Shown one piece after another: positions 8,159 to 24,765 of a stretch of 55,724 bases of DNA. The position numbers were made by a program, and so were the translations under genes. Below the pieces are notes generated by a model. That model searched no databases and was not told where the DNA came from. It was given only the letters and a program-made list of their open reading frames with translations. Source of the DNA: Bacteroidota bacterium (GTDB lineage Bacteria; Bacteroidota; Ignavibacteria; Palsa-1295). Positions within the stretch are counted from its first letter, which is position 1; the number at the start of each line of letters is the position of its first letter. The DNA lies in NCBI GenBank assembly GCA_030706385.1, contig JAUZOQ010000008.1, positions 1-55,724 on the forward strand. Reading direction: 5' to 3'.

Positions 8159-8179
8159 TTTTCCGATCGATACAGGCGG

Positions 8180-8204: not shown

Positions 8205-8213
8205 GCTAAAAAC

Positions 8214-8308: not shown

Positions 8309-8440
8309 CTTAATTTGCGAATTCAATACTGAATTCAAAATTTATGTATTACGTCCCCCTTCTGAGGGACATGGCAATCAAATCGAATAATAACCTGTAT
8401 CTGTGGCGCCCGGTGGCGATGCAAACAAAATCTAAAATTC

Positions 8441-9292
8441 TTAGAACTGCGCAAAAACCGTGGCAAGCATATCGTCGTTACCGCCGTTATAACCAACGGT
8501 TGTATAATGTATCTGTATCTGATCTCCTGCGCTGATCGGCGTAAGGCCTGCAGCCTGCGACGTAAAGTCAAATTCTTCCGTACCATTGATGGTAACGGTC
8601 AACCCGGTAGGATTATTATTGACCCAAACCTCAGCCGTCAGCGTGCCGCCACCACATGGAGCGCTCATAACAACGCTAAGTCCGGTGATCGAACCCGCAA
8701 ACGGTGGAATGATCTTCGTCACTGTCGAGCCTGCAACGGGAATGATGATATTCGTCTTGTTGGTACCGACTGATGATATCGTCCAGGTTCCCAACCCTGC
8801 CTTATCGGCAAATGTACTCGTTGCCCAGGATAGGCCGCCAGCACCGTCATTCTTCAAGAATCCACTGGTATGTGCCGTGGGCCACGTATAGTTGATTCCT
8901 CGAATTGTACCGAGATTTCCGTTCGATCCGGTAACTAAAAATTGATTCGTTGCGCCAATACCGACATCTCCTGTCGATGTGATCGTCATGCGCGTATTCG
9001 GTCCGCCTGTTCCGGTTACGAAGATGAGCGATGTCGCATCAAGCGTTCCGATCTTATTGTTCGGCGAGCTTGATGTATTACCGCCAAGAAGCCAAGCGCT
9101 CGATACGGTGGGCTGTCCGAAAAGCTGAGTCAGGAATGTACCGCCGCCTGTCGGAAGTGTGTATGTTCCGCCGGAAGTCGACCACTTAATGATCGAATAA
9201 TTTCCCGTTCCGTCATCGAGTTGAAGCATATGTTGCGCAAGAAGCGGCGAACTATAGCATAAAGCCAATAGAATGACAAATCTAATTTTCAT
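8441..9292 (-). CDS. Exported fibre-like protein 1 (head module plus C-terminal adhesin-like domain)
   Basis: 283 residues with a signal peptide (MKIRFVILL...LLAQ). The mature N-terminus (QLDDGTGNYSIIKW...LPTGGGTFLT) is closely related to that of the fibre-like protein at 18064-19443. A motif VGIGATNQFLVTG and the closing turn FLKNDGAGGLSWAT are typical of phage tail fibres and of Bacteroidota proteins that share those modules. The C-terminal 90 residues are Gly/Thr-rich beta structure, ending in aromatic F. No catalytic motif or T9SS domain is present. It is flanked by the two copies of the 95-bp repeat. The likely place of action is the cell surface or outside; receptor or partner unknown. 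Confidence 0.75.
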   Translation of the reverse strand: MKIRFVILLALCYSSPLLAQHMLQLDDGTGNYSIIKWSTSGGTYTLPTGGGTFLTQLFGQPTVSSAWLLGGNTSSSPNNKIGTLDATSLIFVTGTGGPNTRMTITSTGDVGIGATNQFLVTGSNGNLGTIRGINYTWPTAHTSGFLKNDGAGGLSWATSTFADKAGLGTWTISSVGTNKTNIIIPVAGSTVTKIIPPFAGSITGLSVVMSAPCGGGTLTAEVWVNNNPTGLTVTINGTEEFDFTSQAAGLTPISAGDQIQIHYTTVGYNGGNDDMLATVFAQF

Positions 9293-9354
9293 GTACCCTC
9301 TGAAAGTAAACTAAATATCCGCGTGAAATGCCCGTGTATGATCGTATGGCAACA

Positions 9355-9362
9355 CAAATATA
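9355..9362 (-). promoter_or_regulatory. Candidate -7 box (TATATTTG, minus strand) for fibre-like protein 1
   Basis: TATATTTG fits the Bacteroidota TAnnTTTG element and is preceded by CG, as at 11433 and 19597. No good TTTG is found at the expected upstream distance, so the call rests on the -7 box alone. It would give a leader of about 55 bases. Confidence 0.4.
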
Positions 9363-9506
9363 CGGAAAAATATCCCGCCTAAGGCGAAAAGCGTATTCCC
9401 TGCCCGTCGATTAGCCCTATAATTACAGGTATTATAATAGCTTATGGCAATTCTACCACTCCGAAAAAGATTCTGATCCAGTCGCACCGAGTTAGGATCG
9501 AAATCA

Positions 9507-9600
9507 AAACTCCCCGCTTTCGAAAAAGCAGGGAGCCATTAGTTTGCCTTATCAACAAGCCGTTACTTGCGTAACGACATCTTGTGAGAACGGTGAGAAA
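9507..9600 (-). repeat. 95-bp repeat, copy 2, with minus-strand terminator
   Basis: Second copy of the element at 8214-8308, in the same orientation. The terminator hairpin (9510-9535) again reads in the minus direction, and lies downstream of the lipoprotein gene 9789-11243. The two copies thus follow two successive, non-homologous minus-strand genes. Confidence 0.8.
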
Positions 9601-9628
9601 ACTTGTTCACAATGATAGTATTAATGAA

Positions 9629-9648
9629 GCGCCTGCCGGAGCAGGCGC
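9629..9648 (-). promoter_or_regulatory. Perfect 8-bp hairpin
   Basis: GCGCCTGC (9629-9636) and GCAGGCGC (9641-9648) enclose CGGA. It lies in the 3' region of the lipoprotein gene between two terminators. In the minus direction it is followed by a mixed T-rich stretch only. Confidence 0.4.
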
Positions 9649-9726
9649 CTCTCTTCATAACCGAATGCTGCCCGTGACAGGGTACTTTTTTAGTGATCAA
9701 TACAGCATCCGATCAAAAACAATTGT

Positions 9727-9769
9727 CAAAAAAAACTATCACCTCTAAGCGCTCCGCATTGAAGCGCTT
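9727..9769 (-). terminator. Probable terminator of the lipoprotein gene
   Basis: AAGCGCT (9747-9753) pairs with AGCGCTT (9763-9769). Reading in the minus direction, about 12 bases later there is a run of eight Ts (As at 9728-9735). It lies 20 bases downstream of the stop codon of the minus-strand gene. Confidence 0.5.
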
Positions 9770-9788
9770 GAAGATGATCACTCATGAA

Positions 9789-11243
9789 TTACTGGGCGTT
9801 GAATGTGACTGTCCAGAAAAGATTCGTACAGGCCGCATCGGTAAAGAACTTCAGATAATACGTCTTCACTACACCGATGTGAGGATTATTGATCTTATTT
9901 GTACCGTCGATATTGTAATGGTTTCCTGTGCATGAAATCTGAACTGCACTTGAGATAGGATCACCCGTAGCCGCGTCCACAAAACAATAGTATAACGGAG
10001 CACCGCACTGGTTAGCAACAGTTGTCGAACCGGTACAAGTGTTAGTCGTCGTACCCAAGTAATCGACATGCGAATTCCACTGCTGGCCGCTTGCCTTTAC
10101 TGTTACCTGAGTTGCACTATTCCAAGTGAAGTTTCCATCGACCGAAGTCGGATATTGGCCGTTCGAACCTACGATGCTGTAGGTAACCGGATTATTAATC
10201 GGAAGAGTCGGGTCGCAAGCGGGGCTGCATGGATCCGCAGTCACGCTGAATGTTGACGAAGCGACGACATTGTTGATGTCACACGTGCCGCTCGTGAGTG
10301 CATACTGAACTGTGTATGTACCCGCTGAAGGCAGAGGAACAGAGAGTGTATACTGGCTACCACCCCAGGTAACTGTCGTCCACGTCGTACCATTGTCTGT
10401 CGTTACGCAAAGATTTCCTGTGTAATCGAAAGAGTTGGTTTGCGTGATATCGCCTGTGCAGGTATTCTGTGTTCTGTTATGAGCAGTGATCTTCCATGCG
10501 AGATCGACCATCTGCGTTGTGCAATTTACAGTTGCAGAGAACGGATCTGCAGTTGCATCGTAGCTGTCGGAAATCGAGATCGGTCCGCAAATGGTGTGTG
10601 AGCCAACATTCGAATAAAGGCTATGGTGTGTGCAATCATTGGCCTGTTTACCGCTTTTCGTCTCATTGGATTTCTCTTCGATACGGTATTGGACAACTTG
10701 GCCGACAGTGAAACCTGCTCCTCCGTTATTATCGGTATAGCAAAGTTCTTTTGTTTCGGCAATTTCCGTCCATGTCGCACCGCCATCAAGGCTGCGTTCA
10801 ACATCGTAATGTCCGGAGTAGGAAGGCAAAGTCACGATCGTGAGCTGCGAGCCGCCCCAGAATTCATACGGACTATGAAGCGCCTGACCTGTACCCTTGT
10901 TCAGGGCATCGGTCGGAACTACGCCGTATGGCCTATTAGGCTTATTGCCTTGAGGCTTATAGTATGTGCCTGTATAATAACTATTTGCAGGCGTCTGATA
11001 TGACCAGCATACGGTTACGCTGGTATTCCCGCCAACCGTTGTAATGTCGCCCTGAGTGACGGTGCCCATAATAGGCGTGGGGATATCGAAACAAGCATCC
11101 GAAGTCGAGCCTGTAGTTGCAGAACTCGGATTTGCAGGGTCATTGACCTTGGCTTTGCTTGCATCCGGACTTACCGGATCGTGGTTACAGCCGGCGGAGG
11201 CAATGGCAAAAGCCACCGCGCAGAGGATGAATAGATTCTTCAT
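9789..11243 (-). CDS. Cys-rich lipoprotein with Ig/FN3-like repeats
   Basis: The ATG at 11241-11243 (MKNLFILCAVAF...) gives a signal peptide ending in the lipobox ASAGC; the longer start at 11276 is not preferred. About 484 residues. The mature protein begins with Cys, so lipidation and attachment to the outer membrane is expected. The rest is beta-rich with many further cysteines (DAC, TVCW, ELCY, NCTTQ, SGTC, PACD, YYCF), implying disulfide bonds outside the cytoplasm. Repeated units such as LDGGATWTEI and DNGTTWTTVTW resemble the edge strands of FN3/Ig domains. It has no sequence likeness to the fibre-like genes around it but sits inside their array, so a role as anchor or assembly partner is possible; this is only inferred from position. 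Confidence 0.75.
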   Translation of the reverse strand: MKNLFILCAVAFAIASAGCNHDPVSPDASKAKVNDPANPSSATTGSTSDACFDIPTPIMGTVTQGDITTVGGNTSVTVCWSYQTPANSYYTGTYYKPQGNKPNRPYGVVPTDALNKGTGQALHSPYEFWGGSQLTIVTLPSYSGHYDVERSLDGGATWTEIAETKELCYTDNNGGAGFTVGQVVQYRIEEKSNETKSGKQANDCTHHSLYSNVGSHTICGPISISDSYDATADPFSATVNCTTQMVDLAWKITAHNRTQNTCTGDITQTNSFDYTGNLCVTTDNGTTWTTVTWGGSQYTLSVPLPSAGTYTVQYALTSGTCDINNVVASSTFSVTADPCSPACDPTLPINNPVTYSIVGSNGQYPTSVDGNFTWNSATQVTVKASGQQWNSHVDYLGTTTNTCTGSTTVANQCGAPLYYCFVDAATGDPISSAVQISCTGNHYNIDGTNKINNPHIGVVKTYYLKFFTDAACTNLFWTVTFNAQ

Positions 11244-11301
11244 GGTCGTTTTGTGGTGTAATAATGATGTTGTCAAGAGGAAACTGGAGTCACGATCCTT
11301 T

Positions 11302-11412
11302 TTCCGTGGCTAGAACAATTATGAATGCTATGTTTCCAACCTTCCTGTGGCAAGGATGGGCAGAAAGAATGTACTACTATTGAATGTTGTCAGAATGCAT
11401 CCCGTGGCAGGG
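11302..11412 (-). promoter_or_regulatory. Leader with three GCCAC-loop mini-hairpins
   Basis: Read on the minus strand, three short stems each present a GCCAC loop: CCC-TGCCAC-GGG (11401-11412), TCCT-TGCCAC-AGGA (11343-11356) and TTCT-AGCCAC-GGAA (11302-11315). All lie in the putative 180-base leader of the lipoprotein gene. Stem sequences differ but pair, while the loop is constant, which suggests an RNA- or DNA-binding site. The motif recurs elsewhere in the fibre locus. Confidence 0.45.
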
Positions 11413-11432
11413 GCATAACGACTTATAAAATG

Positions 11433-11440
11433 CAAAGATA
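11433..11440 (-). promoter_or_regulatory. Candidate -7 box (TATCTTTG, minus strand) for the lipoprotein gene
   Basis: TATCTTTG preceded by CG fits TAnnTTTG. A CAA triplet (TTG on the minus strand) lies about 24 bases upstream, slightly longer than the usual spacing. The transcript would carry the three GCCAC hairpins. Confidence 0.4.
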
Positions 11441-11509
11441 CGTCATTTTTTCCGTGACCACTCACAATCCAAGAATTCTGTGAGAATCTATACTTTTCCC
11501 GCTAATCCC

Positions 11510-12427
11510 TTAGGGCTCAACGATCCACCATGCAACATTGGATACATCGGTAGCAGATGTTGAGGTGATCGTAAAACTTGTTGCTGCAGTCCGGGCGCTG
11601 ATATACGGAGTGCCGACTGTTGCGGCGGCGCCATTCTGCGACATTAAGAAGATCCTCGAACTCGCCGTAACTTTTGTCGTGTTGACAACGACTGTTCCTC
11701 CGACGAGTGTGGCAAGCCCCATCGTGCCGTTAGCACCTTCGGTGATCTTCAAACCTTTTTGTCCGCTGATGCGGATATTTCCAACGACTTCCAAGGGCTC
11801 ACCCGGCGTAGCAGTTCCGAATCCTACATTGCCTCCCATAAAAATGCCGGCATGGTTGACTCCGCCGCCCGTGGCATTGATGGTGGCGCCTATCTGCGTA
11901 CAACTGCTCCCTGCGCTCCCGTTCACATTTGCTGAGTTAAGACAGAATCCTCCCATAGTCACTCCAGTAGCAGAAGCTAAGGTGTTGGTCACATTTGTGC
12001 TTAGGCCAACGGCGCTGGAATTTATTCCATCTACTACCGTAGACGCAACGAATGCACCGACGGAGTTAATGTTAGCCGCTGTGTTAAGATTCTGAAGATA
12101 GAAAAGATAGTTTCCCGTTGTAGCAGTTTGTTGCGGAGCACCCGGTACATACTGAACTCCGTTTCCAGTCAGCCCGCCCGGTTTTGCGCTCCAGCTCAGA
12201 TTGCCCGCTCCGTCATTCATTAACCAACGAGTGGAATCTGTACTATTCCTATTCGTATCCAGGGCCAGAGTATAATTGGTCAACCCTGAACTTGGCGGTT
12301 TCAACGTGATCGTGTTGGTTCCGTTCGAGAGCACGAGCGATCCTCCCCGCAGCGAGTTAGTTTGCGCCACCAGTGCAGTAGCACCGAAGGCGAGCAAGAT
12401 GAAGGTAGCGATGACTAATTTATACAT
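11510..12427 (-). CDS. Exported fibre-like protein 2 (SRIFL..SARTAGTSFTI tail)
   Basis: The ATG at 12425-12427 is preferred over a TTG two codons upstream; about 305 residues, signal peptide ending LVAQ. The head module (LVLSNGTNTITLKPP ... YTLAL ... DGAGNLSW) is the one shared by most genes of this locus. The middle is Ala/Asn/Thr-rich beta structure with a VGFGTATPGEPLEV turn, like the neck of bacteriophage and Bacteroidota fibres. The C-terminal ~70 residues (TKVTASSRIFL ... SARTAATSFTI ... WWIVEP) belong to a tail domain I know from phage tail and tail-fibre proteins. Two neighbours share this tail. Surface attachment or binding is the likely role; target unknown. Confidence 0.75.
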   Translation of the reverse strand: MYKLVIATFILLAFGATALVAQTNSLRGGSLVLSNGTNTITLKPPSSGLTNYTLALDTNRNSTDSTRWLMNDGAGNLSWSAKPGGLTGNGVQYVPGAPQQTATTGNYLFYLQNLNTAANINSVGAFVASTVVDGINSSAVGLSTNVTNTLASATGVTMGGFCLNSANVNGSAGSSCTQIGATINATGGGVNHAGIFMGGNVGFGTATPGEPLEVVGNIRISGQKGLKITEGANGTMGLATLVGGTVVVNTTKVTASSRIFLMSQNGAAATVGTPYISARTAATSFTITSTSATDVSNVAWWIVEP

Positions 12428-12531
12428 GTTCAAACTCTTTTTCTTTTATCACCGGAGCAAATCGATAAACTGCCGAAGCCCCTGTAACTTCTTATAATTC
12501 ATAAATAAAGCTATACACATTCGCTCTTCCC

Positions 12532-13473
12532 TCAGGGCTCTACGATGACCCATGCCACCGTAGAAGCATCCGTTCCGCTTGTCGAAGAGATCGTAAAACT
12601 TGTTCCCGCTGTCCTGGCACTTACATAAAGTTTTCCCGGATTCGTGGCACTCTGTGTCGTCAGAAAGATTCGCGAATTTGCCGTCACCGATGTAGTCTGC
12701 ACAACTTTCGTACCCGCTGCCAGAACTGCCGTTCCCATCGTACCCGGAGTTGCAGCAGTACCACTCCATTCCGAGATCTTCAAGCCGTTCACGCCGGAGA
12801 TCCTGATGTTTCCGTTAACATCGAGATTTTCCGCAGGAGTCGTAGTTCCGATTCCGCAGAGATTACCGCTTGTTCCGGTTAGGATCAAGGCATAATTAAT
12901 TCCATTTCCCGTTGCATTGGCGCAAAGCCCGGTCTGCGTTCCCGTACCGGCATTCGTGACGTTGATGACGACTCCATTGATCGTGACTCCGGTCGCTCCG
13001 GCATTCGTATTTCTTGCAACTACGTGTAATCCGGCAGCACTTGGATTCGGATTATCGATCTGTGATACGATGACAGCACCGGGTAACGGTCCTACACTTC
13101 CAGGAGCATATTCGACATCAAAAAGGTACTGGTTGTTATGAGTTGTTAATTGTTGAGCAGTCGGTCCAATGAGTAAGGCACCGGAACCTGAAGCATCGGG
13201 AACAGGTGTGCCCCAGGTCATAACTCCATTATTAACTCCCAGAAAAAGTCCTGCACCACTTTGAGCGGTTGGAAGCGTCAACGAATAGCTCTCTAAGAGT
13301 CCGGCGGGAGCAGCTAACGACACGGTATTCGTGGCGTTACTAAATGCAGCTGCATTTCCACGCAGCACACCGGTCTGGCTGTAAAGCTGTCCTGCCAACA
13401 TCAGGGGCAGCACGGCTGCGAATGCCTTCGCACCTAGTGTTGGTCTCAATATCTTTTTGTGAACTGGATTCAT
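12532..13473 (-). CDS. Exported fibre-like protein 3 (SRIFL..SARTAGTSFTI tail)
   Basis: 313 residues, with an ATG at 13471-13473 preceded by GAGGA. The signal peptide has a long n-region (MNPVHKKILRP...) and ends LYSQ. Head module NATNTVSLAAP ... YSLTLPTAQ ... NGVMTWGTP; neck turn CGIGTTTPAENLDVNG; tail VTANSRIFLTTQ ... SARTAGTSFTI ... VAWVIVEP. It is paralogous to its two neighbours (11510 and 13501) but the middle is diverged. The stop of the upstream gene lies 27 bases before its start, so the two are probably cotranscribed. Confidence 0.75.
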   Translation of the reverse strand: MNPVHKKILRPTLGAKAFAAVLPLMLAGQLYSQTGVLRGNAAAFSNATNTVSLAAPAGLLESYSLTLPTAQSGAGLFLGVNNGVMTWGTPVPDASGSGALLIGPTAQQLTTHNNQYLFDVEYAPGSVGPLPGAVIVSQIDNPNPSAAGLHVVARNTNAGATGVTINGVVINVTNAGTGTQTGLCANATGNGINYALILTGTSGNLCGIGTTTPAENLDVNGNIRISGVNGLKISEWSGTAATPGTMGTAVLAAGTKVVQTTSVTANSRIFLTTQSATNPGKLYVSARTAGTSFTISSTSGTDASTVAWVIVEP

Positions 13474-13500
13474 ATAATTCTTTTTCCTCAGAGCCTCGTG

Positions 13501-14409
13501 TTATGGCTGAATGATGATCCATGCAATATCGGAAGTATCCGTATTGCTCGTGGAAGTGATCGTGAAGCTCGTGCCTGCAGTTCGCGCACTGACGTACGGC
13601 ATTCCCACAACGCCTCCGGGTTTTTGCGCTGTAAGAAGTATTCGCGACGTTGCAGTAACCTTTGTTGTATTCACAACAACTGTACCGGCTGCAAGCGTGG
13701 CAAGCCCCATTGTTCCGTTCGCTCCCTCGGTTACTTTTAGTCCGTTTACTCCGCTGATCCTGACATTCCCGCTAACTTCTAATTGTTCTACCGGCGCTCC
13801 GGTACCGATACCGACGTTTCCGCCCGTCGTTACAACTGCATAATTTGTTCCGCCACCTGAGACGGTGACCTGCAATCCGGTCTGTGTGCCTGTTCCAGAA
13901 TTACCGACCGTATCGACAAGGGCCACAACAATTCCAGCATTTACATTGGCATTCTTAATATTTCGAGCCGTATCGGTAAGTCCCTCAAAAGATGTATTCG
14001 AACCTCCATTGCCGACAACATTGATCAAGGCGCCCACGGCCGGTCCGGAATCGGTTGTCTGGTAACCGATATTAAAAAGAGGAACTCCCAAGTCGTTAAG
14101 TACTTGAGGCCCGCTGACGTTGTAGAGTACCGTTCCTGTGCTCGTAGCCGAGACGGGTACGCCCCAGTGCAGATTACCGGTTCCATCGTCAAAAATATAT
14201 TGCAGTCCGTTTGCCGTATCGACCGGAAGTGTTAGTGTCCAGGTCTTCGGAGAACCGGGAAGTGTAAGCGTGATAGCATTCGTGCCGTTACTGAGCACTG
14301 CCCTTCCACCGCGCAGCGTTCCGATCTGTGCAAAACTTGTCGATGTGCACAGAAGAACCAGCGCAGAAAGAGCTGCTGCGAATCTCCCGAACTTGACTAT
14401 GGCCGTCAT
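13501..14409 (-). CDS. Exported fibre-like protein 4 (SRILL..SARTAGTSFTI tail)
   Basis: An ATG at 14407-14409 gives about 302 residues; a TTG three codons upstream is an alternative. Signal peptide MTAIVKFGRF... ending SFAQ. Head module LRGGRAVLSNGTNAITLTLP ... DDGTGNLHWG; neck turn VGIGTGAPVEQLEVSG followed by RISGVNGLKVTEGANG, nearly identical to genes 2 and 3; tail TKVTATSRILL ... SARTAGTSFTI ... IAWIIIQP. Spacing of 48 bases to the upstream gene suggests cotranscription. Differences among the three paralogues are concentrated in the middle third. Confidence 0.75.
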   Translation of the reverse strand: MTAIVKFGRFAAALSALVLLCTSTSFAQIGTLRGGRAVLSNGTNAITLTLPGSPKTWTLTLPVDTANGLQYIFDDGTGNLHWGVPVSATSTGTVLYNVSGPQVLNDLGVPLFNIGYQTTDSGPAVGALINVVGNGGSNTSFEGLTDTARNIKNANVNAGIVVALVDTVGNSGTGTQTGLQVTVSGGGTNYAVVTTGGNVGIGTGAPVEQLEVSGNVRISGVNGLKVTEGANGTMGLATLAAGTVVVNTTKVTATSRILLTAQKPGGVVGMPYVSARTAGTSFTITSTSNTDTSDIAWIIIQP

Positions 14410-14457
14410 GTTTTTCAAAGTCTCTTTCAGATCAAAAGTGATACTGCAAAAGTAATG

Positions 14458-16149
14458 TTACTGAACGCGTGTTGCCTTCAGGTGCGAATTCGTCAGGATC
14501 GTTGTTGTGGCTGCCTGACTGGTTGCCTGAGCTTCCTGCAGCTGCAGATTCCCTGCTGTGCCTCCGACAACGACGATGCCGGAAACAAAGATGCTCTGAT
14601 CGTTAGTCGATGTTGTTGCATCGACATGAAAAGTCGAAGCCGCCGTTCCGGAAGAGGTGATCGAAGAAGGCGTGATCGCCGTTCCTGCCTGATCGAAGCT
14701 CCAGCGAATCGAAGCACCGGCAGGAATGGTGAATGCAATTTTCAGATCGCTTGAAGTCGTCGATCCGTCATAGGCGATAACACCGGAAAATTCATATGTT
14801 GCATTTGCAACCATAGGAATGAAGAGATCTGCATCGCTCTGTAGCGTTGTGTTCGAAGCGGTGAGCACAACATCCGTGGTCTTGCGAGCGAAGGTCACGG
14901 CTCCAGCCGATGACCAGCCCAGCGTGATCGCACTGCCAGCAACAGATGTTGCCGTCAAAACCTGGTTCGTCGTCGGCAGCGTTGTCGGCAGAGTGTAATT
15001 CAGATTCGTCGCACCCTGCGCACCCGTGGTGAAGGACGAAACACCGGCACCATTTCCGGTAAGTGTCAGGATGTTGTTCACGCCCGAGAGAGTAAGATTT
15101 TCATTTGTCGAGACAGTACCGGAAGCATCGGTGATCGAGGAATTACCGAGAGCAGATGAGCTTGTCCAGACTGGGATGCTATTGATGCTGCCCGATCCCG
15201 TGATCGTACCGCTACCCGAGGCACTTAATGTCGTACCCGTCAGAGTCAGTCCGGATCCGATCGTAATTTCTTCAACAGAACCGGCGCCAGCCGATGCACG
15301 TCCTAACAAACGAGATGTTGCCGATACGTTCTGCATGTTGGCATACGTAATGAGCGCTTGATTGATCTGCTGTCCGGTAAGAGTAAGATATGTTCCGGGG
15401 CCGGCAACAGTAACATCGCCGGAATTTGTACCCGTAAGATTTAAGAGAGTCTTGATCGCTGCGGGACTCTGCTCACTTGGCGGAGCAGCAATACCGGATG
15501 TATTTCCGAGCAACGTGTTATTTGTCTCGTTCTGGATCCCTCCATATGGAAGCTGTCCCGAAACATTGCCGCCGGAAAGATTGACCGGACTGGCAGTAAT
15601 GACTTGTCCTGCAATGCTGAGGTAATTCTGGCCTGCAAGAGTTACGTCGCCGGAATTGGTACCTGTAAGATTCAAAAATGTTTTTACATCGCTTGCCGTC
15701 AGTTCCGTAACGCTTGCCGGCGATGCAGTATTATTACCGAGGATCTTGTTTGCGCCTACATTCTGGATATTTCCGTAGGTGATCAAAGCCTGATTGATCT
15801 GCTGACCGGTCAGTGAAAGATAGGAACCCGGACCTGCAAGAGTCACATCTCCGGTATTCGAACCCGATGAACCTGTGAGCCCGAGGAAGGAGAGCATCGC
15901 AGATTGCGTAGCCCACGACAATGTGCCGGCCTTATTAAAGAGCGGTCCGTTCGTGCTTGTGCCCGGAAAGGTCAGCGTGTATCCGCCACTTCCGAGAATG
16001 GGAGTTTGCAACGTAAGCGTATTGGCGATATCATTGCCGCTGCCCGAGAGGACGAGCTTCTGCCCGTACTTCGGTGCATACGTTTGTGCAGATGCAGCAG
16101 AAGTAAGCACTGCAGCAGCTATCGTCATTGCGATAAGGATGTTTTTCAT
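14458..16149 (-). CDS. Exported fibre-like protein 5 with three internal shaft repeats
   Basis: The ATG at 16147-16149 (MKNILIAMTI..., signal ending ASAQ) is preferred over an upstream in-frame start that would cross a strong hairpin. 563 residues. Head module KLVLSGSGNDIANTLTLQTP ... YTLTFPG ... AGTLSWA (30-80). Then three shaft repeats of about 70-75 residues (from ~98, ~165 and ~241), each starting N.GDVT.AG and containing a TGQ.I turn, very like the shaft repeats of tailed-phage fibres. The C-terminal domain from FARKTTDVVLTASNTTLQSD to LKATRVQ is a phage-type tail related to that of the gene at 22802. No catalytic residues can be assigned. Confidence 0.75.
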   Translation of the reverse strand: MKNILIAMTIAAAVLTSAASAQTYAPKYGQKLVLSGSGNDIANTLTLQTPILGSGGYTLTFPGTSTNGPLFNKAGTLSWATQSAMLSFLGLTGSSGSNTGDVTLAGPGSYLSLTGQQINQALITYGNIQNVGANKILGNNTASPASVTELTASDVKTFLNLTGTNSGDVTLAGQNYLSIAGQVITASPVNLSGGNVSGQLPYGGIQNETNNTLLGNTSGIAAPPSEQSPAAIKTLLNLTGTNSGDVTVAGPGTYLTLTGQQINQALITYANMQNVSATSRLLGRASAGAGSVEEITIGSGLTLTGTTLSASGSGTITGSGSINSIPVWTSSSALGNSSITDASGTVSTNENLTLSGVNNILTLTGNGAGVSSFTTGAQGATNLNYTLPTTLPTTNQVLTATSVAGSAITLGWSSAGAVTFARKTTDVVLTASNTTLQSDADLFIPMVANATYEFSGVIAYDGSTTSSDLKIAFTIPAGASIRWSFDQAGTAITPSSITSSGTAASTFHVDATTSTNDQSIFVSGIVVVGGTAGNLQLQEAQATSQAATTTILTNSHLKATRVQ

Positions 16150-16208
16150 TGTCGTCCGTCGTCTCATAAATGTAAAACTCTTGTATTGTTCTAGTTTTCC
16201 GTTGCTCC

Positions 16209-16238
16209 GGGATGGCCTGCCTTTATGCAGGCCATCCC
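16209..16238 (-). promoter_or_regulatory. Perfect 12-bp hairpin upstream of fibre gene 5
   Basis: GGGATGGCCTGC (16209-16220) pairs without mismatch to GCAGGCCATCCC (16227-16238) across a six-base loop. It lies 60 bases before the start of the 14458 gene in the minus direction and lacks a T-run, so a leader structure or a stop point for the upstream transcript are both possible. Confidence 0.55.
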
Positions 16239-16265
16239 AGGAACGACGCACCTAACTTAACACGT

Positions 16266-16324
16266 ATAGGACAATACTCCGAATAGCTCGGGGATAACCC
16301 CCGTAAGAGTATCGTGTCTCCTAT
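16266..16324 (-). promoter_or_regulatory. Three-tier hairpin at the 3' end of fibre gene 6
   Basis: Nested stems ATAGGA/TCCTAT (outer), ATACTC/GAGTAT (middle) and CGGGG/CCCCG (apex, 16289-16293 with 16299-16303). The outer arm touches the stop codon of the 16324 gene. No T-run follows in either direction. Confidence 0.5.
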
Positions 16325-17985: not shown

Positions 17986-18013
17986 AGAATTAAGAATAAA
18001 TATATAATGTATA

Positions 18014-18037
18014 CCGTGGCTAAAAAAAAATCGTGGC
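18014..18037 (-). promoter_or_regulatory. Paired TTAGCCACG motifs before fibre gene 6
   Basis: On the minus strand, TTAGCCACG occurs twice (centred on 18035 and 18017) around a run of Ts, in the 78-base spacer between two minus-strand fibre genes. These are members of the GCCAC motif family; no strong stem forms here. Confidence 0.35.
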
Positions 18038-18063
18038 TAAAATTCAGAACGAACTTAACAAAA

Positions 18064-19443
18064 TTAATTCGTCGATACGATTTCCCAAAATCCTAATGTA
18101 CCGTCGTAAATAAGAGAGACCGTGGCTTTCGGCCCCATGATAATATCTGCGCCTGCCGGAAGATCGAATTGATTCGCGGCTGCGGATCCCTGTTGGCTCT
18201 TTAATGTAATCGTGTTGGCACCGACGTTCGAGATCGTGATCATCCTTCCGGCAATCCCTCCGGTAATTCCCGTGAGGTTTATTGCGCCTGTGCTTGAAAT
18301 GCGGAAGTATGAGTTCGAGGCGCTGAGCGCATAATCGTTGGTATTGGCAACAAGCGATGCCGGAGTGACCGGAGTAAGCGCTTCACCACCTAAGGTTTGT
18401 GTTCCTGTCCAGGTATTCGGGTTGGCAACATTAAGAACGAGATTGCTTGCCGTTGTCCCCGCACCTGATAAACTTGCGTTATGCTGAATGTTTGCATCGA
18501 CCGGAGTAGAGATGCCGTTTCCGGTGAGCCCTGTTCCGACGCTGAGCCCCGTCCAACCAACGGTAGATGATCCGTTTGTCGTCAAAAATGTATTCGTTCC
18601 GCCCGGAGTAATGCTTGAAGTTCCGACGGTTGACCATGTCGGTGTTGCACCTGTACCGGCGCTGGTCAAGACTTGGCCCGAATTACCGACCGCACCATTC
18701 ATGCTCAGCGGCGAAGTGGTGCCGACAAGTTGCATAGTTCCGGTCACATTTGTCGAACTTGCTGCGCGACCGATCGAGACATCTCCGGCAGAAGAAGTCA
18801 TCGAGACATCGCCGTTTGCCCTGACGTTAAAGAGCGGTACACCGGCTACGCCTGCAGCAGTCTGCTGAGATACATCGAGTGCCATAGATTGAATTCCGTT
18901 GCTTGCAACCTTGATCTCAACACCATTGCGGCTATTGGTCGTAGCATCTGAATTCCAAAAAGCGGCTACATATCCGTTCGTATTGATCATCCAGGAAAGA
19001 CTGTTGCCCGTTTCGCCATCGCCGTTCGCGCCGACGATATTGGTGCCTGAGGGAACGTTGGCAAGTAATGTGCTGGGATTCGATTGACCGATTCCGATAA
19101 ATCCGGTTGCCGTCATTCTCATGCGCTCGTTACCGGCAGTCTTGAAGATGACATCGTAGTTGTTGGTCGAGCCGAAAAATTGCGCAGGAGTTGCAGGAGT
19201 GCCTCCGGAGAGGATATTCCCCACGGCCATCCATGCAGGAGCCGGGCCGCCGCCGCCATCGGTGAGCAATGTGCCACCGCCGACGGGGAACATGAAAATA
19301 TCGAGAGCATCGACAGTCTGCCCTTTCAGGAGCGAGTAATGCCCGCTTCCGTCATCAACTTGAACTTGATGCTGTGCGCGAACCTCATTGTTTGTGAAAA
19401 GCGCAAATAGTGCGATAATTGCAAATAGCCGAAAATGTTTCAT
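18064..19443 (-). CDS. Exported fibre-like protein 7
   Basis: The ATG at 19441-19443 (MKHFRLFAIIAL..., signal ending VRAQ) is preferred over an in-frame start 14 codons upstream. 459 residues. The mature N-terminus (HQVQVDDGSGHYSLLK ... GGGTLLTDGG) matches that of protein 1 at the far left end of the array. The shaft has a GFIGIGQSNPSTLL neck turn and the phrase TNTFLTTNGSSTVGWTGL shared with its neighbour. The C-terminus (YFRISSTGAINLTGITGGIAGRMITI ... VSLIYDG...WEIVSTN) is the same tail domain as in protein 6. It is the first gene of the leftward arm, reading away from the central hub. Confidence 0.75.
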   Translation of the reverse strand: MKHFRLFAIIALFALFTNNEVRAQHQVQVDDGSGHYSLLKGQTVDALDIFMFPVGGGTLLTDGGGGPAPAWMAVGNILSGGTPATPAQFFGSTNNYDVIFKTAGNERMRMTATGFIGIGQSNPSTLLANVPSGTNIVGANGDGETGNSLSWMINTNGYVAAFWNSDATTNSRNGVEIKVASNGIQSMALDVSQQTAAGVAGVPLFNVRANGDVSMTSSAGDVSIGRAASSTNVTGTMQLVGTTSPLSMNGAVGNSGQVLTSAGTGATPTWSTVGTSSITPGGTNTFLTTNGSSTVGWTGLSVGTGLTGNGISTPVDANIQHNASLSGAGTTASNLVLNVANPNTWTGTQTLGGEALTPVTPASLVANTNDYALSASNSYFRISSTGAINLTGITGGIAGRMITISNVGANTITLKSQQGSAAANQFDLPAGADIIMGPKATVSLIYDGTLGFWEIVSTN

Positions 19444-19596
19444 TTGTATTCCGTGGTAAACGAATGCTTGAAAATCAGATTTCACTGTCGATTGGAAATT
19501 GTGGCAATTCCCAAACTGCTATTCTAATGTATTTTTTCCCGTGTTCTCTGCACAGAACTTTTGTAAAAATTCAGTGCCTTACTCATCCGTGGCGTG

Positions 19597-19604
19597 CAAA
19601 TATA
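19597..19604 (-). promoter_or_regulatory. Candidate -7 box (TATATTTG, minus strand) of the leftward fibre arm
   Basis: CAAATATACG on the plus strand, the same string as at 9355. TTTTTG lies 23 bases upstream on the minus strand. Expected leader about 145 bases, containing GCCACGG (19587-19593) and ACCACGG (19451-19457) motifs. Confidence 0.45.
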
Positions 19605-19971
19605 CGGTGAGAATTTCCAAGCCCACACAAAAACGGAAAAATTTTCCCTAAGTGCTTTATTTTCAATATGTATATTTTCCGTATTTCGAGGATTCTTCGA
19701 AATAAGTTTGCTTTGAAATGACGTATGAATCCACGACTGGATACATTGGAATTCTGACGAATGCTTAGATCGAATTCCTCTCTCATCATTGTCTCAAATT
19801 TACTACGAAGGTGGAGGGACTGATGTCGTTGAAAATAATAAAATCCGTGCCAAACAGTGCCCCATAATTGCACAATTTGCTCCATAAATCAACATTCTCA
19901 TTTTTTTTCCTGCGATTCCGTACTCCAAAAGGCATAAATCTTACTTTTACTAAGTTTTCTCCGATTTCCGA

Positions 19972-20032
19972 TTTGCATTCAGTTTTTCAATGATGTATTT
20001 TTGCATCACTTGTGAGCGCACAAGTATTTTTT
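19972..20032 (+). promoter_or_regulatory. Candidate plus-strand promoter overlapping a hairpin/T-run
   Basis: TTTG (19972-19975), 20 bases, TATTTTTG (19996-20003). Immediately downstream ACTTGTG (20008-20014) and CACAAGT (20019-20025) form a perfect stem with an AGCG loop followed by TTTTTT. Either the hairpin is a 5' cap of a long leader toward 20545, or it terminates a transcript from further left and the promoter match is chance. Confidence 0.4.
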
Positions 20033-20401
20033 ACGACGAAATTTTCTGCGATCGCGCAAGGAGCGTTTCACAGAGAAAGAGTCATCGAAAAAGAAATTGA
20101 TAAGAGTTAGTTTGCATCTGCAGGGTTTGCCGCCCCGCATTAGTTACTGCCTTATTTCCAATCATTCCTTGAGATTTCGATAGGAGATCTCGGAATATCG
20201 CCCCCTGCCATGGGAGATCTGGAAATAAACTTTAAGATTTTAGGATCGGGATGCTTCCGCCCAAAAGACGGCTGGAAGTTTTTTGATCAACTTTCGGTCA
20301 CGTGACCGATTCGATTGTTTGTTTTCGGCTCCGTTCGTTTTTTTTGCTTGGAGGAGCAACGCGAACGATGCCCCGTAGTATGTTATCACGAGCATTGGAG
20401 T

Positions 20402-20469
20402 CTTCCGCGCCACGGAAGGTACAATGTCACTAAAAAAAAATCATTAGACCATCCGCGCCACGGAAGGTA
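20402..20469 (+). repeat. Two direct copies of a CGCCACGGAAGGTA hairpin box
   Basis: CTTCCG-CGCCA-CGGAAG (20402-20418) is a 6-bp hairpin; a second copy (CCGCGCCACGGAAGGTA, 20453-20469) lies 48 bases later. They precede the first gene of the rightward fibre arm by 76-125 bases. The core CGCCACGGA is found once in the opposite orientation at 19586-19594, before the leftward arm. Confidence 0.5.
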
Positions 20470-20544
20470 AAGTGAATATCAACAAGATGAACAATATCTG
20501 CTTGCCATTGCGCTAAGCGAGAGACTATTTTTATTATCGAATTT

Positions 20545-21309
20545 ATGAGAACAAGACAACTAATCATTGCCTGCATGATGCTTTGTGCCTTTAGCAAGAT
20601 CGATGCTCAAACATTCGGCCGCATTATCGGTGCCGGAAGTTTCGAAGTTGATGACGGCACACGCTCGGGTAAGACACTGCGTTGGGATGTTGCTTCGCCT
20701 TTAAGCGCTTCCTACATGCTGCATTTCCCAAGCAATCCGCCGACAGGTGGTCAAAACTTCCTGACTGCTGACGGTAATGGCAACATGAACTGGGCTACCA
20801 ATATCCTGCCACCTCTTCCGCCCGGAAACATGTGGTGCGGAAATGAGGCAAGCATTGCAACGCCAATGGCACCGGGTACGATCGGAAGTATCTTAGGAGT
20901 AGACGTGAACGGAATGCCGGAATGGCTGACGACTCTTCCGAACGCAGTGAGCGTATCGGCTAGCCAAATAACGAGCGGCACACTTCAGCCAGGTACAGCA
21001 ATAACCGTAGGCAACGGATCATCGATTTCGCCCTCAGGTACGGGACTCATTGTCGCCAATCGTCTCGGCGGCTCAGGTGTGAACAAGTACTCAGGTACAT
21101 TAGCGATTCCGCTCAATGCCCTTTCGATGAATATTAATTATTCCGGAGTTACCGCGTCATCGACCATTCTCGTATCGATCATCGATCCGAGCGGCCAGAC
21201 AGCACAGGTATCGGTAGCGAATATTACAGCTGGAATAGGATTTGCCGTCATCTTTTCCGGATACTATCCGACGACCACAGGAAGTTTGAATTACATCGTC
21301 ATTAATTAG
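20545..21309 (+). CDS. Exported fibre-like protein 8
   Basis: 254 residues; signal peptide MRTRQLIIACMML... ending IDAQ. Head module GSFEVDDGTRSGKTLRWD ... YMLHFPSNPPTGGQNFLTADGNGNMNWAT, so the head is shared even though this gene is on the other strand. A short Gly/Ser/Thr-rich shaft follows, with the phrase ITSGTLQPGTAITVGNGSS. The C-terminal ~80 residues (VNKYSGTLAIPLNALSMNI ... GYYPTTTGSLNYIVIN) resemble the tail of the next gene. It is the first gene of the rightward arm. Confidence 0.75.
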   Translation: MRTRQLIIACMMLCAFSKIDAQTFGRIIGAGSFEVDDGTRSGKTLRWDVASPLSASYMLHFPSNPPTGGQNFLTADGNGNMNWATNILPPLPPGNMWCGNEASIATPMAPGTIGSILGVDVNGMPEWLTTLPNAVSVSASQITSGTLQPGTAITVGNGSSISPSGTGLIVANRLGGSGVNKYSGTLAIPLNALSMNINYSGVTASSTILVSIIDPSGQTAQVSVANITAGIGFAVIFSGYYPTTTGSLNYIVIN

Positions 21310-21336
21310 AACATTTATTTACTTAACAACAACCAG

Positions 21337-21368
21337 ATAATAATTTCCACGCCATGGGCAATTATTAT
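21337..21368 (+). promoter_or_regulatory. 9-bp hairpin with GCCAT apex between fibre genes 8 and 9
   Basis: ATAATAATT (21337-21345) pairs perfectly with AATTATTAT (21360-21368); inside it CC/GG closes a loop containing ACGCCAT. It lies in the 96-base spacer and presents the same kind of GCCA(C/T) loop as the other mini-hairpins of the locus. Confidence 0.5.
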
Positions 21369-21405
21369 TGATACTTAACATAACCACGTAGTCACTAAAA
21401 AAACA

Positions 21406-22506
21406 ATGAAAACATCAATCAAAATCACCCTCGCGCTTGCAATCGTAAGCTTTTTTACGGTCGCAGCACAGGCACAATTAACAGCACCTTTCGCTGGTGG
21501 CGTAAAGCTTCAGCAGGGCGGCGTAACCAATCCCCAATTCGGAATTGGAATGAAGGCGAAGCAGACCTATACCAGCGATTTTACGCTGAACTGGGCTCAG
21601 CCGACATCCAACGGAGTACTGAAGCTTTCGGGCTACGGTGTTGGAGGCGGTGACGTTGTCGTGAGTGCACTCGATCTTTCCACAGATGTCGGTTCGAGCA
21701 TCCTCGGTATTGCCAATGGCGGTACAGGTTCTTCGACTGCGAACGGAGCATTGAACAATTTGCTCCCGACACAGACCGGTAACAATGGAAAATTCCTCGT
21801 CACCAATGGTTCGAACACGTCATGGACGACGGCTGTCACTTCAGTCGGCCTCTCGTTGCCGAGCGAACTTACAGTCTCGAACTCGCCGGTAACAACAACA
21901 GGAACATTGACCGCGGCTTGGGCAAGCCAGAGCGCGAACAAGATCTTCGCTTCACCCGATGGATCTGCTGGTGCACCGTCTTTCCGTTCGATGACGTCAA
22001 ATGACGTTCCGAATCTCGATGCTTCGAAGATCGCAACCGGAACACTTCCGGTCAACCGCGGCGGAACGGGCGTTACTTCACTTGCTGCAAATGGAGTTGT
22101 TACGGTTAATGCAACCGGTGATGGACTCGTTTCGACACATTTGAATGACGGCCAGATCATGATCGGTAACACCAGCGGCGGAGCATCGGCTGCAACGCTT
22201 ACTGCAGGCAGCGGCATCAGCATCACGAATGCCGGTGGTGCCATCACGATTTCATCGAATGCCAATGGATTGAATAAATCTCGAATCGCTCTGAGCGCAT
22301 CACAGTATAGCTATACTGCAAATGCAGCTCCGGCTGGATTCACGTTGACAGCGACTTCGGTCATCACGATCACCGTTTTCGAAGCAGGCGGATATCCTAT
22401 CACTGCGACCGTAACTAACATCAATACATCGAATAATACATTCGATTTTGTGATCTCGGGTTACCCGACGGCGGGCAGCTCAGCGCTTATCGCTTTCCAG
22501 AACTAA
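21406..22506 (+). CDS. Exported fibre-like protein 9
   Basis: 366 residues; signal peptide MKTSIKITLALA... ending AQAQ. The head is a variant (VKLQQGGVTNPQFGIG ... DFTLNWAQPTSNGVLKLSG). The shaft has hallmark phage-fibre phrases: LGIANGGTGSSTANGALNNLLP, GKFLVTNGSNTSWTT, VNRGGTGVTSLAANG. The C-terminal ~80 residues (NKSRIALSASQYSYTANAAP ... YPTAGSSALIAFQN) are related to protein 8. No enzyme motif or sorting domain. Upstream ATG context has AAAAAAACA and no Shine-Dalgarno. Confidence 0.75.
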   Translation: MKTSIKITLALAIVSFFTVAAQAQLTAPFAGGVKLQQGGVTNPQFGIGMKAKQTYTSDFTLNWAQPTSNGVLKLSGYGVGGGDVVVSALDLSTDVGSSILGIANGGTGSSTANGALNNLLPTQTGNNGKFLVTNGSNTSWTTAVTSVGLSLPSELTVSNSPVTTTGTLTAAWASQSANKIFASPDGSAGAPSFRSMTSNDVPNLDASKIATGTLPVNRGGTGVTSLAANGVVTVNATGDGLVSTHLNDGQIMIGNTSGGASAATLTAGSGISITNAGGAITISSNANGLNKSRIALSASQYSYTANAAPAGFTLTATSVITITVFEAGGYPITATVTNINTSNNTFDFVISGYPTAGSSALIAFQN

Positions 22507-22640
22507 GCAATAAAGTATAGTTCGCAGTTGGCGGCCGAAGGCAGGATACCCACAAAATATCTTAACTGAAAGCCGCTGACTGCAAACTGTTTTGAACTCG
22601 TGAGAGAGAAAGACCATTGCCTGCTTAGCAGGTTTGCCAG

Positions 22641-22739
22641 ACAAATACCCCTCTTTGTATAGTGAGTTTTATCGTCAGACAATGAAGAATACAAGTTTAG
22701 AAATTGAAAAGTGTTCTATGCAAAGTGAGGGGTATTTGT
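22641..22739 (+). promoter_or_regulatory. Long leader hairpin before fibre gene 10
   Basis: ACAAATACCCCT (22641-22652) pairs perfectly with AGGGGTATTTGT (22728-22739), and pairing resumes inside with TTTG/CAAA and TATAG/CTATG, giving a stem of about 20 bp around a 50-base loop. A GCCAC motif (CCCGTGGCAGG, 22741-22751, GCCAC on the minus strand) abuts the right arm. A weaker imperfect inverted repeat (GCAGTTGGCGGC near 22518 with GCCGCTGACTGC near 22572) lies upstream. Confidence 0.5.
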
Positions 22740-22801
22740 TCCCGTGGCAGGTTCTCCGCAAGTACCCCCATTTCTTTTCAGGTAGCATGAAGAATAGGAT
22801 T

Positions 22802-24544
22802 ATGAAAAAGAATTTTATGAAACAATATCTTACGTCACTGTTCGCAATTGGAATACTTGCGATCACAGGCCAGTCATTCGCGCAGCAATCGTTATTCGGA
22901 ATCCGATTGCAGGATGCGAACAGTCATGTCCTTTCCATCAATGCACCGACGACAGGATTTACGGCAAGCTATAATTTTCGTTTTCCGGCAGGAATGCCTG
23001 CAGCAGGTGCTCTTCTTTATGCAAGCGATGGGGCAGGACAATCTGCCTGGCTTCCCGCCGGAACTGCGGGGCAAGTGCTATCATTCGCAGCGGGGTTACC
23101 AGTCTGGACGGATATCAATACCTTGATCTCAGCCACAACTGGATGGGCAGTTACGGGTAATGCCACTCTATCTGCGTATAATGGAATAACCGGAAGTTAC
23201 CTTGGCACAAGCACTGCGCAACCTCTCGTCGTTGCGACGACAAATATTCTCAGTCCGCAGCCGATCGAATTCTATACGAATAACTCTGAGAAAATGCGCC
23301 TGAGTTCAGGAGGCGAACTTGGAATCGGGCTTTCACCGACAGCAGGTAAACTCTTGCATGTGGCCGGGACTGCCGGAACGTCGAATATTCGGTTGGCTTC
23401 TCTCGCTTCCGCGACCGGAACAACAGGACGCATTATGTTCGCTACTGATGGAACAGGGGACCTTCAAACCCTCGCCTTCCCATCTTCTTCAGGAATGGTG
23501 CTATCATCAACGACATCCGGCACATTGAGCTGGGTAAGCGAAGCATCAGGATCGGGTTGGACAACGACAGGAAATTCCGGAACTTCACCTTCAACAAATT
23601 TCATCGGCACTACCGATGCGCAGGATCTTGTCGTTAAGACCGGCGGCAGCGCATCGACGAACGAACGTCTCAGAGTAACGAGTGCAGGGAAGATCGGTAT
23701 CGGTAATATTATACCGAGTGCAACTCTCGACCTCAAGGGAGATTATGCAACTCGTTACGCAGGAAGCACACTATCGAACGGAGTAAACAATGATGTCGAT
23801 CCGAGTTCATCTAGCTATCTTCGCATTTCCGGACCAACGGCTGCATACTCGATCACCGGCTTTGCCGGCGGATCGGACGGTAAGCGATTGACGATCTTCA
23901 ATGCGACAGGACAAGTCTTGACGTTATCTTATGATAATTCTTCGGCGACATCCGGAAACAGGTTATTCATTCCGACCAGATCCGATCTGACGGTTTATGA
24001 TTCCGGTACTGTAAGTCTCGTTTACGATGCCGTGAACGCCCATTGGAGTGTCACCAACTTTACGAATGCTCTCCTTCCGCAGGTTGGCGCACAAATACTT
24101 GCACGCAAGCCGAGCAATGAAAATCGCACAACCAATACGACGATGACGAATGATGCGGATCTGCAATGGTCTGTCGGAGCGAATCAGGTTTGGGAAGTCA
24201 GGGGAATGCTCATCGTTTCCTCGGGCTCTTCCACACCGGATTTCAAATTTCAGTTCGTCGGCCCCGGTGGAACGGGCGATGGACTCACGCTCGATCATAA
24301 AGCCTACAGCATTAGCTCAACAGGAGGTGGTTTCAGCGAAATCAACTTGATGACAGCGTACTCCAGCAGTTCAGGAGATATCACAGTGAAGAATAACGCA
24401 AAGACCGTCGTTGAAGTAGCTGGGGTATTTACGATCGGATCTGCCGGAGGATCGGTAAAGCTGCAATGGGCCCAGCAAAATTCAAACGCAACTGCCACCA
24501 CATTGGAAAAGGATACTTACTTATTCATCACAAGGATCCAGTAA
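22802..24544 (+). CDS. Exported fibre-like protein 10, two tail domains in series
   Basis: The ATG at 22802 (after AGGA) gives a typical signal peptide (MKKNFMKQYLTSLF... ending SFAQ), 580 residues; ATGs at 22787 and 22817 are alternatives, and the far upstream start at 22634 would run through the leader hairpin. Head module LFGIRLQDANSHVLSINAP ... YNFRFPAGMPAAGALLYASDGAGQSAW. Neck turn LGIGLSPTAGKLLHVAG. It contains the SSYLRISGPTAAYSITGFAGG..GKRLTI ... VSLVYDA domain found at the end of proteins 6 and 7, followed by the LARKPSNENRTTNTT ... KLQWAQQNSNATATTL ... ITRIQ tail related to protein 5. Such a tandem shows recombination of tail modules. Followed by a strong terminator. Confidence 0.78.
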   Translation: MKKNFMKQYLTSLFAIGILAITGQSFAQQSLFGIRLQDANSHVLSINAPTTGFTASYNFRFPAGMPAAGALLYASDGAGQSAWLPAGTAGQVLSFAAGLPVWTDINTLISATTGWAVTGNATLSAYNGITGSYLGTSTAQPLVVATTNILSPQPIEFYTNNSEKMRLSSGGELGIGLSPTAGKLLHVAGTAGTSNIRLASLASATGTTGRIMFATDGTGDLQTLAFPSSSGMVLSSTTSGTLSWVSEASGSGWTTTGNSGTSPSTNFIGTTDAQDLVVKTGGSASTNERLRVTSAGKIGIGNIIPSATLDLKGDYATRYAGSTLSNGVNNDVDPSSSSYLRISGPTAAYSITGFAGGSDGKRLTIFNATGQVLTLSYDNSSATSGNRLFIPTRSDLTVYDSGTVSLVYDAVNAHWSVTNFTNALLPQVGAQILARKPSNENRTTNTTMTNDADLQWSVGANQVWEVRGMLIVSSGSSTPDFKFQFVGPGGTGDGLTLDHKAYSISSTGGGFSEINLMTAYSSSSGDITVKNNAKTVVEVAGVFTIGSAGGSVKLQWAQQNSNATATTLEKDTYLFITRIQ

Positions 24545-24566
24545 AGAAGGATTGTTTTAGATACAC

Positions 24567-24636
24567 TAGCAAACACCATAGCCTCCCGAATTCTATCAGG
24601 CGCCGATACCATTCCTAATGGTATCGGCGTTTTTTT
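24567..24636 (+). terminator. Strong rho-independent terminator with conserved 5' box
   Basis: CGCCGATACCATT (24601-24613) pairs perfectly over 13 bp with AATGGTATCGGCG (24617-24629), loop CCT, then seven Ts. The 20 bases before it (TAGCAAACACCATAGCCTCC, 24567-24586) recur almost unchanged at 25032-25050 ahead of another hairpin. Ends the rightward fibre arm. Confidence 0.9.
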
Positions 24637-24765
24637 GCCCCCTGATTCTGCAAAAACACCGCAAAAACGCCATATTTTCCTCGAAATACGCTAAATTGAA
24701 GTTGACTAAGGTTTTTAAGAAAATAAATTTGTTTATTTGTGGGGATTTGTGTATTTTTGTGGAGT

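What the first reader, a model, noticed from the sequence alone, without database searches (positions are those of the whole stretch)
8441..24544. Divergent array of ten Sec-exported proteins built like phage tail fibres
Ten genes, seven leftward and three rightward from a shared hub, each begin with a signal peptide and a similar head module (LVLSNGTN.ITL.P...YTLTLP...DGAG.LSW) and end in tails that I recognise from phage tail fibres. No phage structural, packaging or integration gene lies anywhere near. No T9SS sorting domain is present although T9SS is used by the neighbouring secreted proteins. This looks like a host-run repertoire of secreted fibres, perhaps adhesins, decoys or competition factors. 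To my knowledge such a locus is not described as a system; the claim of novelty is an inference.
Basis: partly seen in the sequence, partly recalled or inferred. Interest (0 to 1): 0.75.

Follow-up and report, generated by a model that had tools for sequence, protein, structure and literature searches.

The report
Secreted phage-tail-fibre-like adhesin gene array
A bacterium related to Ignavibacteriota carries a 16.5-kb block of ten genes for exported fibre proteins tipped with phage tail-fibre domains, most like the prey-recognising surface fibres of the predator Bdellovibrio, and arranged in three-gene units whose order is conserved in relatives; they are probably sugar-binding surface adhesins.

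Summary
Ten genes (8441-24544; seven leftward, three rightward; the ORF at 9789-11276 is an unrelated lipoprotein) encode Sec-exported, Q-starting, fibre-like proteins. g2-g4 end in a phage tailspike tip domain (PF24146); the g4 tip is 55-64% identical to Streptomyces-phage tail fibres. The g5/g10 tip is a predicted TNF-like lectin fold. The g7 tip matches phage tail fibres. No phage gene was recognised among the flanking genes scanned, and no Baseplate_J was found in the genome.

The idea is not wholly new. The g2-g4 profile matches crystal structures of Bdellovibrio 'mosaic adhesive trimer' (MAT) fibres, a described repertoire of secreted, phage-like surface adhesins with TNF-like tips among others. 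MAT membership is unproven: the N-terminal domains could not be compared.

New here: the array consists of three-gene modules. One (g7-g6-g5) occurs 11 times in 9 of 13 family genomes, same order and strand; g8-g9-g10 and g4-g3-g2 also recur. A congener lacks exactly the 16.5-kb block between the same flanking genes. The genome encodes more such proteins.

Most likely function: surface-displayed trimeric glycan-binding adhesins (about 0.6). Outer-membrane route, trimer state and ligand are untested. New variant of a known kind; interest 0.5.

The parts
8441..9292 (-). g1: exported fibre-like protein, 283 aa, QLDDGTGNYS head; tail without recognised relatives
9789..11276 (-). lipoprotein (..SAGC lipobox), no family; inside the block but not a fibre
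11510..12433 (-). g2: exported fibre, C-terminal K1-lyase_C tip; third gene of module C (g4-g3-g2)
   Evidence: PF24146 E 5e-24; 60% to G001:C54 protein
12532..13473 (-). g3: exported fibre, K1-lyase_C tip; second gene of module C
   Evidence: PF24146 E 3e-24; 69% to G001:C54 protein
13501..14418 (-). g4: exported fibre, K1-lyase_C tip; first gene of module C
   Evidence: PF24146 E 2e-27; tail 55-64% to Streptomyces phage tail fibres; A1 profile hits MAT 8ol4, tailspike 7eea, depolymerase 9k4a
14458..16251 (-). g5: exported fibre (likely start near 16149), DUF5907 repeat, TNF-like tip; third gene (Z) of module A
16324..17985 (-). g6: exported fibre, QTYKPD head, STN-type tip; second gene (Y) of module A
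18064..19485 (-). g7: exported fibre (start at MKHFRL), STN-type tip; first gene (X) of module A
19486..20544 (.). divergent hub between the two transcription units; two 23-nt direct repeats (20404-20426, 20452-20474)
20545..21309 (+). g8: exported fibre, K1-lyase_C-like tip; first gene of module B (g8-g9-g10)
21406..22506 (+). g9: exported fibre; second gene of module B, 68% to G002 orthologue
22634..24544 (+). g10: exported fibre (start at MKKNFM), internal STN domain and TNF-like tip; third gene of module B
24601..24629 (+). perfect 13-bp hairpin followed by T-run just after g10: likely terminator of the rightward unit
8159..24698 (.). block absent from congener G001, where the flanking genes (6731-8158 and 25241-27184) lie next to each other

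Best explanation
The ten genes encode a repertoire of Sec-exported, homotrimeric fibre adhesins. Each has a short conserved N-terminal head that sits near the cell, a beta-rich or beta-helical shaft, and an exchangeable C-terminal tip. The tip domains are shared with phage tail fibres and tailspikes: a tailspike tip (K1-lyase_C), a TNF-like lectin and the STN-type domain. The fibres would be displayed outside the cell and bind glycans on surfaces or other cells, working like Bdellovibrio MAT fibres. They are made from probably co-transcribed three-gene modules (g7-g6-g5, g8-g9-g10, g4-g3-g2). Shown: export signals, domain make-up, phage-type tips, conserved module order, absence of a phage context, presence/absence of the block in the genus. 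Inferred: trimerisation, crossing of the outer membrane by an unidentified route, surface display and glycan binding.
For: Signal-peptide-like start ending before Q in 10 of 10, as in high-Q-value bacteria (Ignavibacterium album Q-value 77%, PMC5837995). The g2-g4 profile matches MAT structures 8ol4 (E 2e-4) and 8ond/Bd2133 (3e-3) at the GNVGIGT..P...L.V.G shaft motif, and phage tailspike or depolymerase tips 7eea and 9k4a. Tip domains occur in phage tail fibres. AlphaFold of the g5 tip has pLDDT 90 and matches TNF-family trimers and lectins 2wq4 (TM up to 0.70) and 9ib7; 2wq4 is also the best match of the Bd2734 MAT tip (PMC10769870). The g8 tail matches 9k4a, 7eea and Helix pomatia agglutinin, weakly. 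Paralogues in the genome or family carry YadA_head and collagen repeats, both of trimeric proteins. The same tips occur on different heads.
Against: No localisation, oligomer or binding data. No outer-membrane anchor, barrel, T9SS domain or lipobox explains surface display. The full-length g8 model is poor (pLDDT 65, pTM 0.33), so the head fold is unknown. The MAT sequence matches are modest (E 1e-4 to 1e-3) and confined to low-complexity beta motifs.
Confidence: 0.6

Rival explanations
1. Each three-gene module makes one composite, multi-segment fibre or surface layer from three different subunits (as phage T4 long tail fibres are joined from several gene products), with the third, usually longest protein as the distal, most variable part; the main role is structural (matrix or fibre) rather than ten separate adhesins.
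For: The X-Y-Z order is fixed in 11 of 11 occurrences, each position keeps its own type, and the first two proteins share one tip type. g8-g9-g10 are kept together in G000, G002 and G006.
Against: No connector domain pairing the C-terminus of one protein with the N-terminus of the next was found. Conserved order is also explained by co-transcription alone. Each protein has its own signal peptide and terminal tip.
Confidence: 0.17
2. The fibres are released to block phage receptors, trap phages or bind competing cells (decoys or competition factors).
For: Tips are of the receptor-binding kind found in phages; no surface anchor was recognised.
Against: No toxin or lytic domain was found. Phages sharing the tips infect distant hosts (Streptomyces, Bradyrhizobium). 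The AbiU and Type IIG genes of the window lie about 17 kb away with no sign of linkage.
Confidence: 0.12
3. The genes are remnants of a prophage or parts of a tailocin or contractile injection system.
For: Tip domains are shared with phages.
Against: No PHROG match in ten flanking genes; no Baseplate_J in the genome although it is found in control genomes; relatives have them among housekeeping genes; Sec signals with Q at +1.
Confidence: 0.03
4. They are T9SS cargo with an unrecognised sorting signal, i.e. ordinary T9SS surface proteins.
For: The genome has SprA and several T9SS-domain neighbours.
Against: No Por_Secre_tail match at E up to 1 in any of the ten; their C-termini are occupied by phage tip domains.
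Confidence: 0.08

Closest known systems
Mosaic adhesive trimer (MAT) superfamily of Bdellovibrio bacteriovorus (Caulton et al. 2024, PMC10769870)
   Same: Sec signal, one conserved N-terminal domain, beta-rich shaft with shared GNVGIGT-type motif (sequence match to 8ol4 and 8ond), diverse exchangeable tips including TNF-like ones, many paralogues per genome, phage-fibre resemblance.
   Different: Another phylum; head about 65-85 aa instead of about 130 aa and not shown to be related; ordered three-gene modules in a dense array; K1-lyase_C and STN tips; no S74 domain in this genome; no evidence of predation.
Phage tailspikes and depolymerases with K1-lyase_C tip (K1 lyase, Klebsiella depolymerase 9k4a, cyanophage Pam1 tailspike 7eea)
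   Same: C-terminal tip domain of g2-g4 (PF24146), weakly g8.
   Different: No lyase or depolymerase body, no virion-attachment part, but a signal peptide.
Trimeric autotransporter adhesins (YadA) and bacterial collagen-like proteins
   Same: Trimeric exported fibres; some paralogues in this genome or family carry YadA_head or collagen repeats.
   Different: None of the ten has a YadA anchor barrel or collagen repeats.

Membership tests
MAT superfamily | N-terminal signal peptide | tested here: met
   10 of 10 by hydrophobicity and cleavage-site heuristic
MAT superfamily | conserved beta-rich domain of about 130 aa right after the signal peptide, common to all members | not testable with these tools
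The ten have a conserved head, but it is shorter (about 65-85 aa).
MAT superfamily | trimeric beta-prism or beta-helix shaft | tested here: inconclusive
   Shaft motif of g2-g4 matches MAT crystal structures (E 2e-4, 3e-3); trimer state not predicted
MAT superfamily | diverse C-terminal adhesive tips (TNF-like, C-type lectin, beta-sandwich or S74) | tested here: met
   TNF-like tip, tailspike tip, STN tip. S74 absent from this genome, present in relatives.
MAT superfamily | surface display and glycan binding | not testable with these tools
   needs experiment
Prophage, tailocin or eCIS locus | linked phage structural or baseplate genes | tested here: not met
   flanks
T9SS cargo | C-terminal sorting domain (PF18962 or similar) | tested here: not met
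   (none in ten at E up to 1) versus neighbours
Trimeric autotransporter (type Vc) | C-terminal YadA anchor barrel | tested here: not met
   no YadA-anchor hit in Pfam

The most novel reading that the evidence does not exclude
A family-wide system of Sec-exported fibres assembled from ordered three-gene modules, in which position-specific subunits (X, Y, variable Z) co-assemble into composite surface fibres with phage-type tips, delivered through an unknown outer-membrane route and swapped between genomes as modules.
Probability: 0.2. Interest if true: 0.75.

Novelty: new variant of a known kind. Interest (0 to 1): 0.5.

Why it matters
It suggests that using phage-fibre parts as a bacterium's own surface-recognition repertoire is not special to the predator Bdellovibrio. 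It recurs in the Ignavibacteriota/Bacteroidota branch, in dense arrays that come and go within a genus. The fixed three-gene order gives a testable clue to how such fibres are built, and export without a T9SS signal raises the question of how they reach the surface, which is also open for MAT fibres.

Tried and rejected
Literature searches for tail-fibre-like secreted proteins in Ignavibacteria or Bacteroidetes found nothing relevant. The lipoprotein at 9789 has no relatives in the fetched loci. The 475-aa neighbour (6731-8158) looked tied to module B, but its family has 4-6 copies per genome in several members, so the link is at best partial. The motif RCCACGGWA is enriched in the window (8 against 1.1 expected) and lies upstream of g6, g7, g8 and the lipoprotein, but is absent upstream of fibre genes in relatives, so no regulatory claim is made. 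The full-length g8 model was too weak to interpret the head. Direct sequence search of the TNF-like and STN tips in the PDB found nothing significant. A viral scan with g2-g4 and with g9 gave only one weak locus each. No terminal repeats were found at the ends of the 16.5-kb block and no integrase or transposase was recognised in it.

Full report
What is there. The window is a whole contig (G000:C140) of a 3.52-Mb draft genome, 96% complete. A congener in the same genus has a contig of the same length and content as a record named 'Ignavibacteriae bacterium GL140_6', so the organism belongs to or near Ignavibacteriota in the FCB group. All ten start with a signal-peptide-like segment ending in A/S just before Q. 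Among fetched fibre genes, 67 of 73 show the same Q site, against 69 of 176 other signal-bearing ORFs, by a rough regular-expression test. This fits the Q-rule, which is strong in Ignavibacterium album (PMC5837995).

Domains. Pfam finds K1-lyase_C (PF24146), the tip of phage capsule depolymerases, at the C-terminus of g2, g3 and g4 (E 1e-24 to 1e-27) and a DUF5907 repeat in g5. PHROGs links g5 and g10 to one phage family and g2-g4 to tail and other phage proteins. The last 80-98 residues of g4 are 55-64% identical to Streptomyces phage tail fibres or tailspikes. The g7 tail is about 40% identical to a Bradyrhizobium phage tail fibre. Iterated profiles over the fetched loci resolve three tip types: K1-type (32 proteins, nearly all at the C-terminus), STN-type (31, at the C-terminus or internal) and TNF-type (19, mostly C-terminal). 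AlphaFold gives the g5 tip pLDDT 90. Foldseek places it with TNF-family trimers and the TNF-like lectins BC2L-C (2wq4, TM up to 0.70) and PLTL (9ib7), and with phage tail fibres at E down to 4e-12. The g8 tail resembles depolymerase 9k4a, tailspike 7eea and Helix agglutinin, at weak E-values; the rest of the g8 model is unreliable.

Closest known system. A profile of g2-g4 against the PDB hits the Bdellovibrio MAT fibre 8ol4 (E 2e-4) and Bd2133 (8ond, E 3e-3), besides the two phage tips; that 8ol4 is a MAT entry rests on its molecule name and on my knowledge of that paper's depositions. MAT proteins are secreted, surface-shown, trimeric, mosaic fibres with phage-like, TNF-like or lectin tips; all have a conserved domain of about 130 aa after the signal peptide (PMC10769870). 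The TNF-like tip of Bd2734 had 2wq4 as best match, the same lectin found here. The likeness in build is therefore close. Membership is not established, because the N-terminal domains could not be compared and trimers were not shown.

Not a phage locus. Flanking genes are ordinary (PGK, GAPDH, RuvA, amine oxidase, T9SS cargo). Ten flanking proteins have no PHROG match. Baseplate_J is missing from the genome. In relatives the fibre genes also lie among housekeeping genes.

Modules. Comparison of 13 genomes of the family shows three-gene units. Module A: a first protein with STN tip (X), a second with QTYKPD head and STN tip (Y), then a third, usually the longest (Z). A whole-genome search of 245 genomes of the class with the Y head gives 11 matches at E below 1e-26, all in this family (9 genomes). 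All 11 have X just upstream and a co-directional gene downstream; in G007 the contig ends in that gene. Adjacent STN-tip pairs: 11 observed, against a mean of 1.2 and a maximum of 6 in 2000 random placements among 162 exported low-complexity ORFs. Regions were fetched because of head matches, so the shuffle test is not independent of the search, but the Y-head scan is whole-genome. Module B: g8-g9-g10 have orthologues in the same order in G002 and G006 (g9 68% and about 50-54% identical), and similar trios exist on C118 of this genome and elsewhere in G002. Module C: g4-g3-g2 recur in G001 at 60-69% identity, at another place beside secD/secF-like genes. Tip types sit on different head types, which is mosaicism as in MAT.

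Empty site. In G001 the orthologues of the two genes bounding the array (6731-8158, 67% identical; 25241-27184, 68%) are neighbours, and DNA homology resumes at window positions 8055 and 24699. The whole block of ten fibres and the lipoprotein is thus missing there, as one indel of about 16.5 kb. In G006 a relative of the same left-hand gene is directly followed by module B, so this neighbourhood recurs. No terminal repeat marks the block.

Scale. This genome has further fibre genes on C118, C123, C39, C77 and C90. Some paralogues in it or the family carry YadA_head or collagen repeats. Peptidase_S74 is absent from this genome but present in six of the 13 family genomes. The head profile is found in 12 of 13 family genomes and in only 6 of 48 other class genomes tested.

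Mechanism. Shown: export signals, phage-type tips, modular order, host context. Inferred: three chains fold into a trimer through shaft and tip, the head stays near the cell, and tips bind glycans. How the proteins cross the outer membrane is unknown: no sorting domain, anchor barrel or lipobox was found, although the genome has the T9SS translocon gene SprA. Each leftward gene from g6 to g2 follows the last by 27-98 bp, and a hairpin terminator follows g10, consistent with two main transcripts.

Verdict. Real, well outside chance, not a prophage. The general idea is known from Bdellovibrio; the lineage, the dense array and the conserved three-gene modules are new to my knowledge. A new variant of a known kind.

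Noticed in passing
window 8214-8308 and 9507-9600: 95-bp direct repeat (98% identical) containing a terminator-like hairpin flanks g1; a third copy (86%) lies on contig C35 of the genome. Suggests recent duplication or insertion of the g1 cassette.
   Followed up: partly
window 41169-46127: Defence-like pair: AbiU/AIPR protein and a Type IIG restriction enzyme-methyltransferase, in a lower-GC stretch.
   Followed up: no
window 11302, 18012, 19449, 20409, 20457 (also 607, 28054, 39743): Motif RCCACGGWA occurs 8 times against 1.1 expected, five of them upstream of genes of the array; not seen upstream of fibre genes in relatives.
   Followed up: partly
window 6731-8158: About 475-aa protein of an unnamed family, 4-6 copies per genome in several family members, some next to module B in three genomes; function unknown.
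   Followed up: partly
L051 5493-7673, L052 3875-5467, L090 8631-10811: A second head type ('SYQG..') on related exported fibres of this family; possibly the counterpart of the MAT N-terminal domain, untested.
   Followed up: no
L052 1-5467 and L102 2844-13112: A further conserved unit (SYQG-head protein, PSLVTQQ-head protein, short protein, long QRGVRISN-head protein) in the same order in two genera.
   Followed up: no
L040, L043, L038: GIGT-type fibre relatives of g2-g4 in Chryseobacterium, Planctomycetota and Omnitrophota genomes.
   Followed up: no
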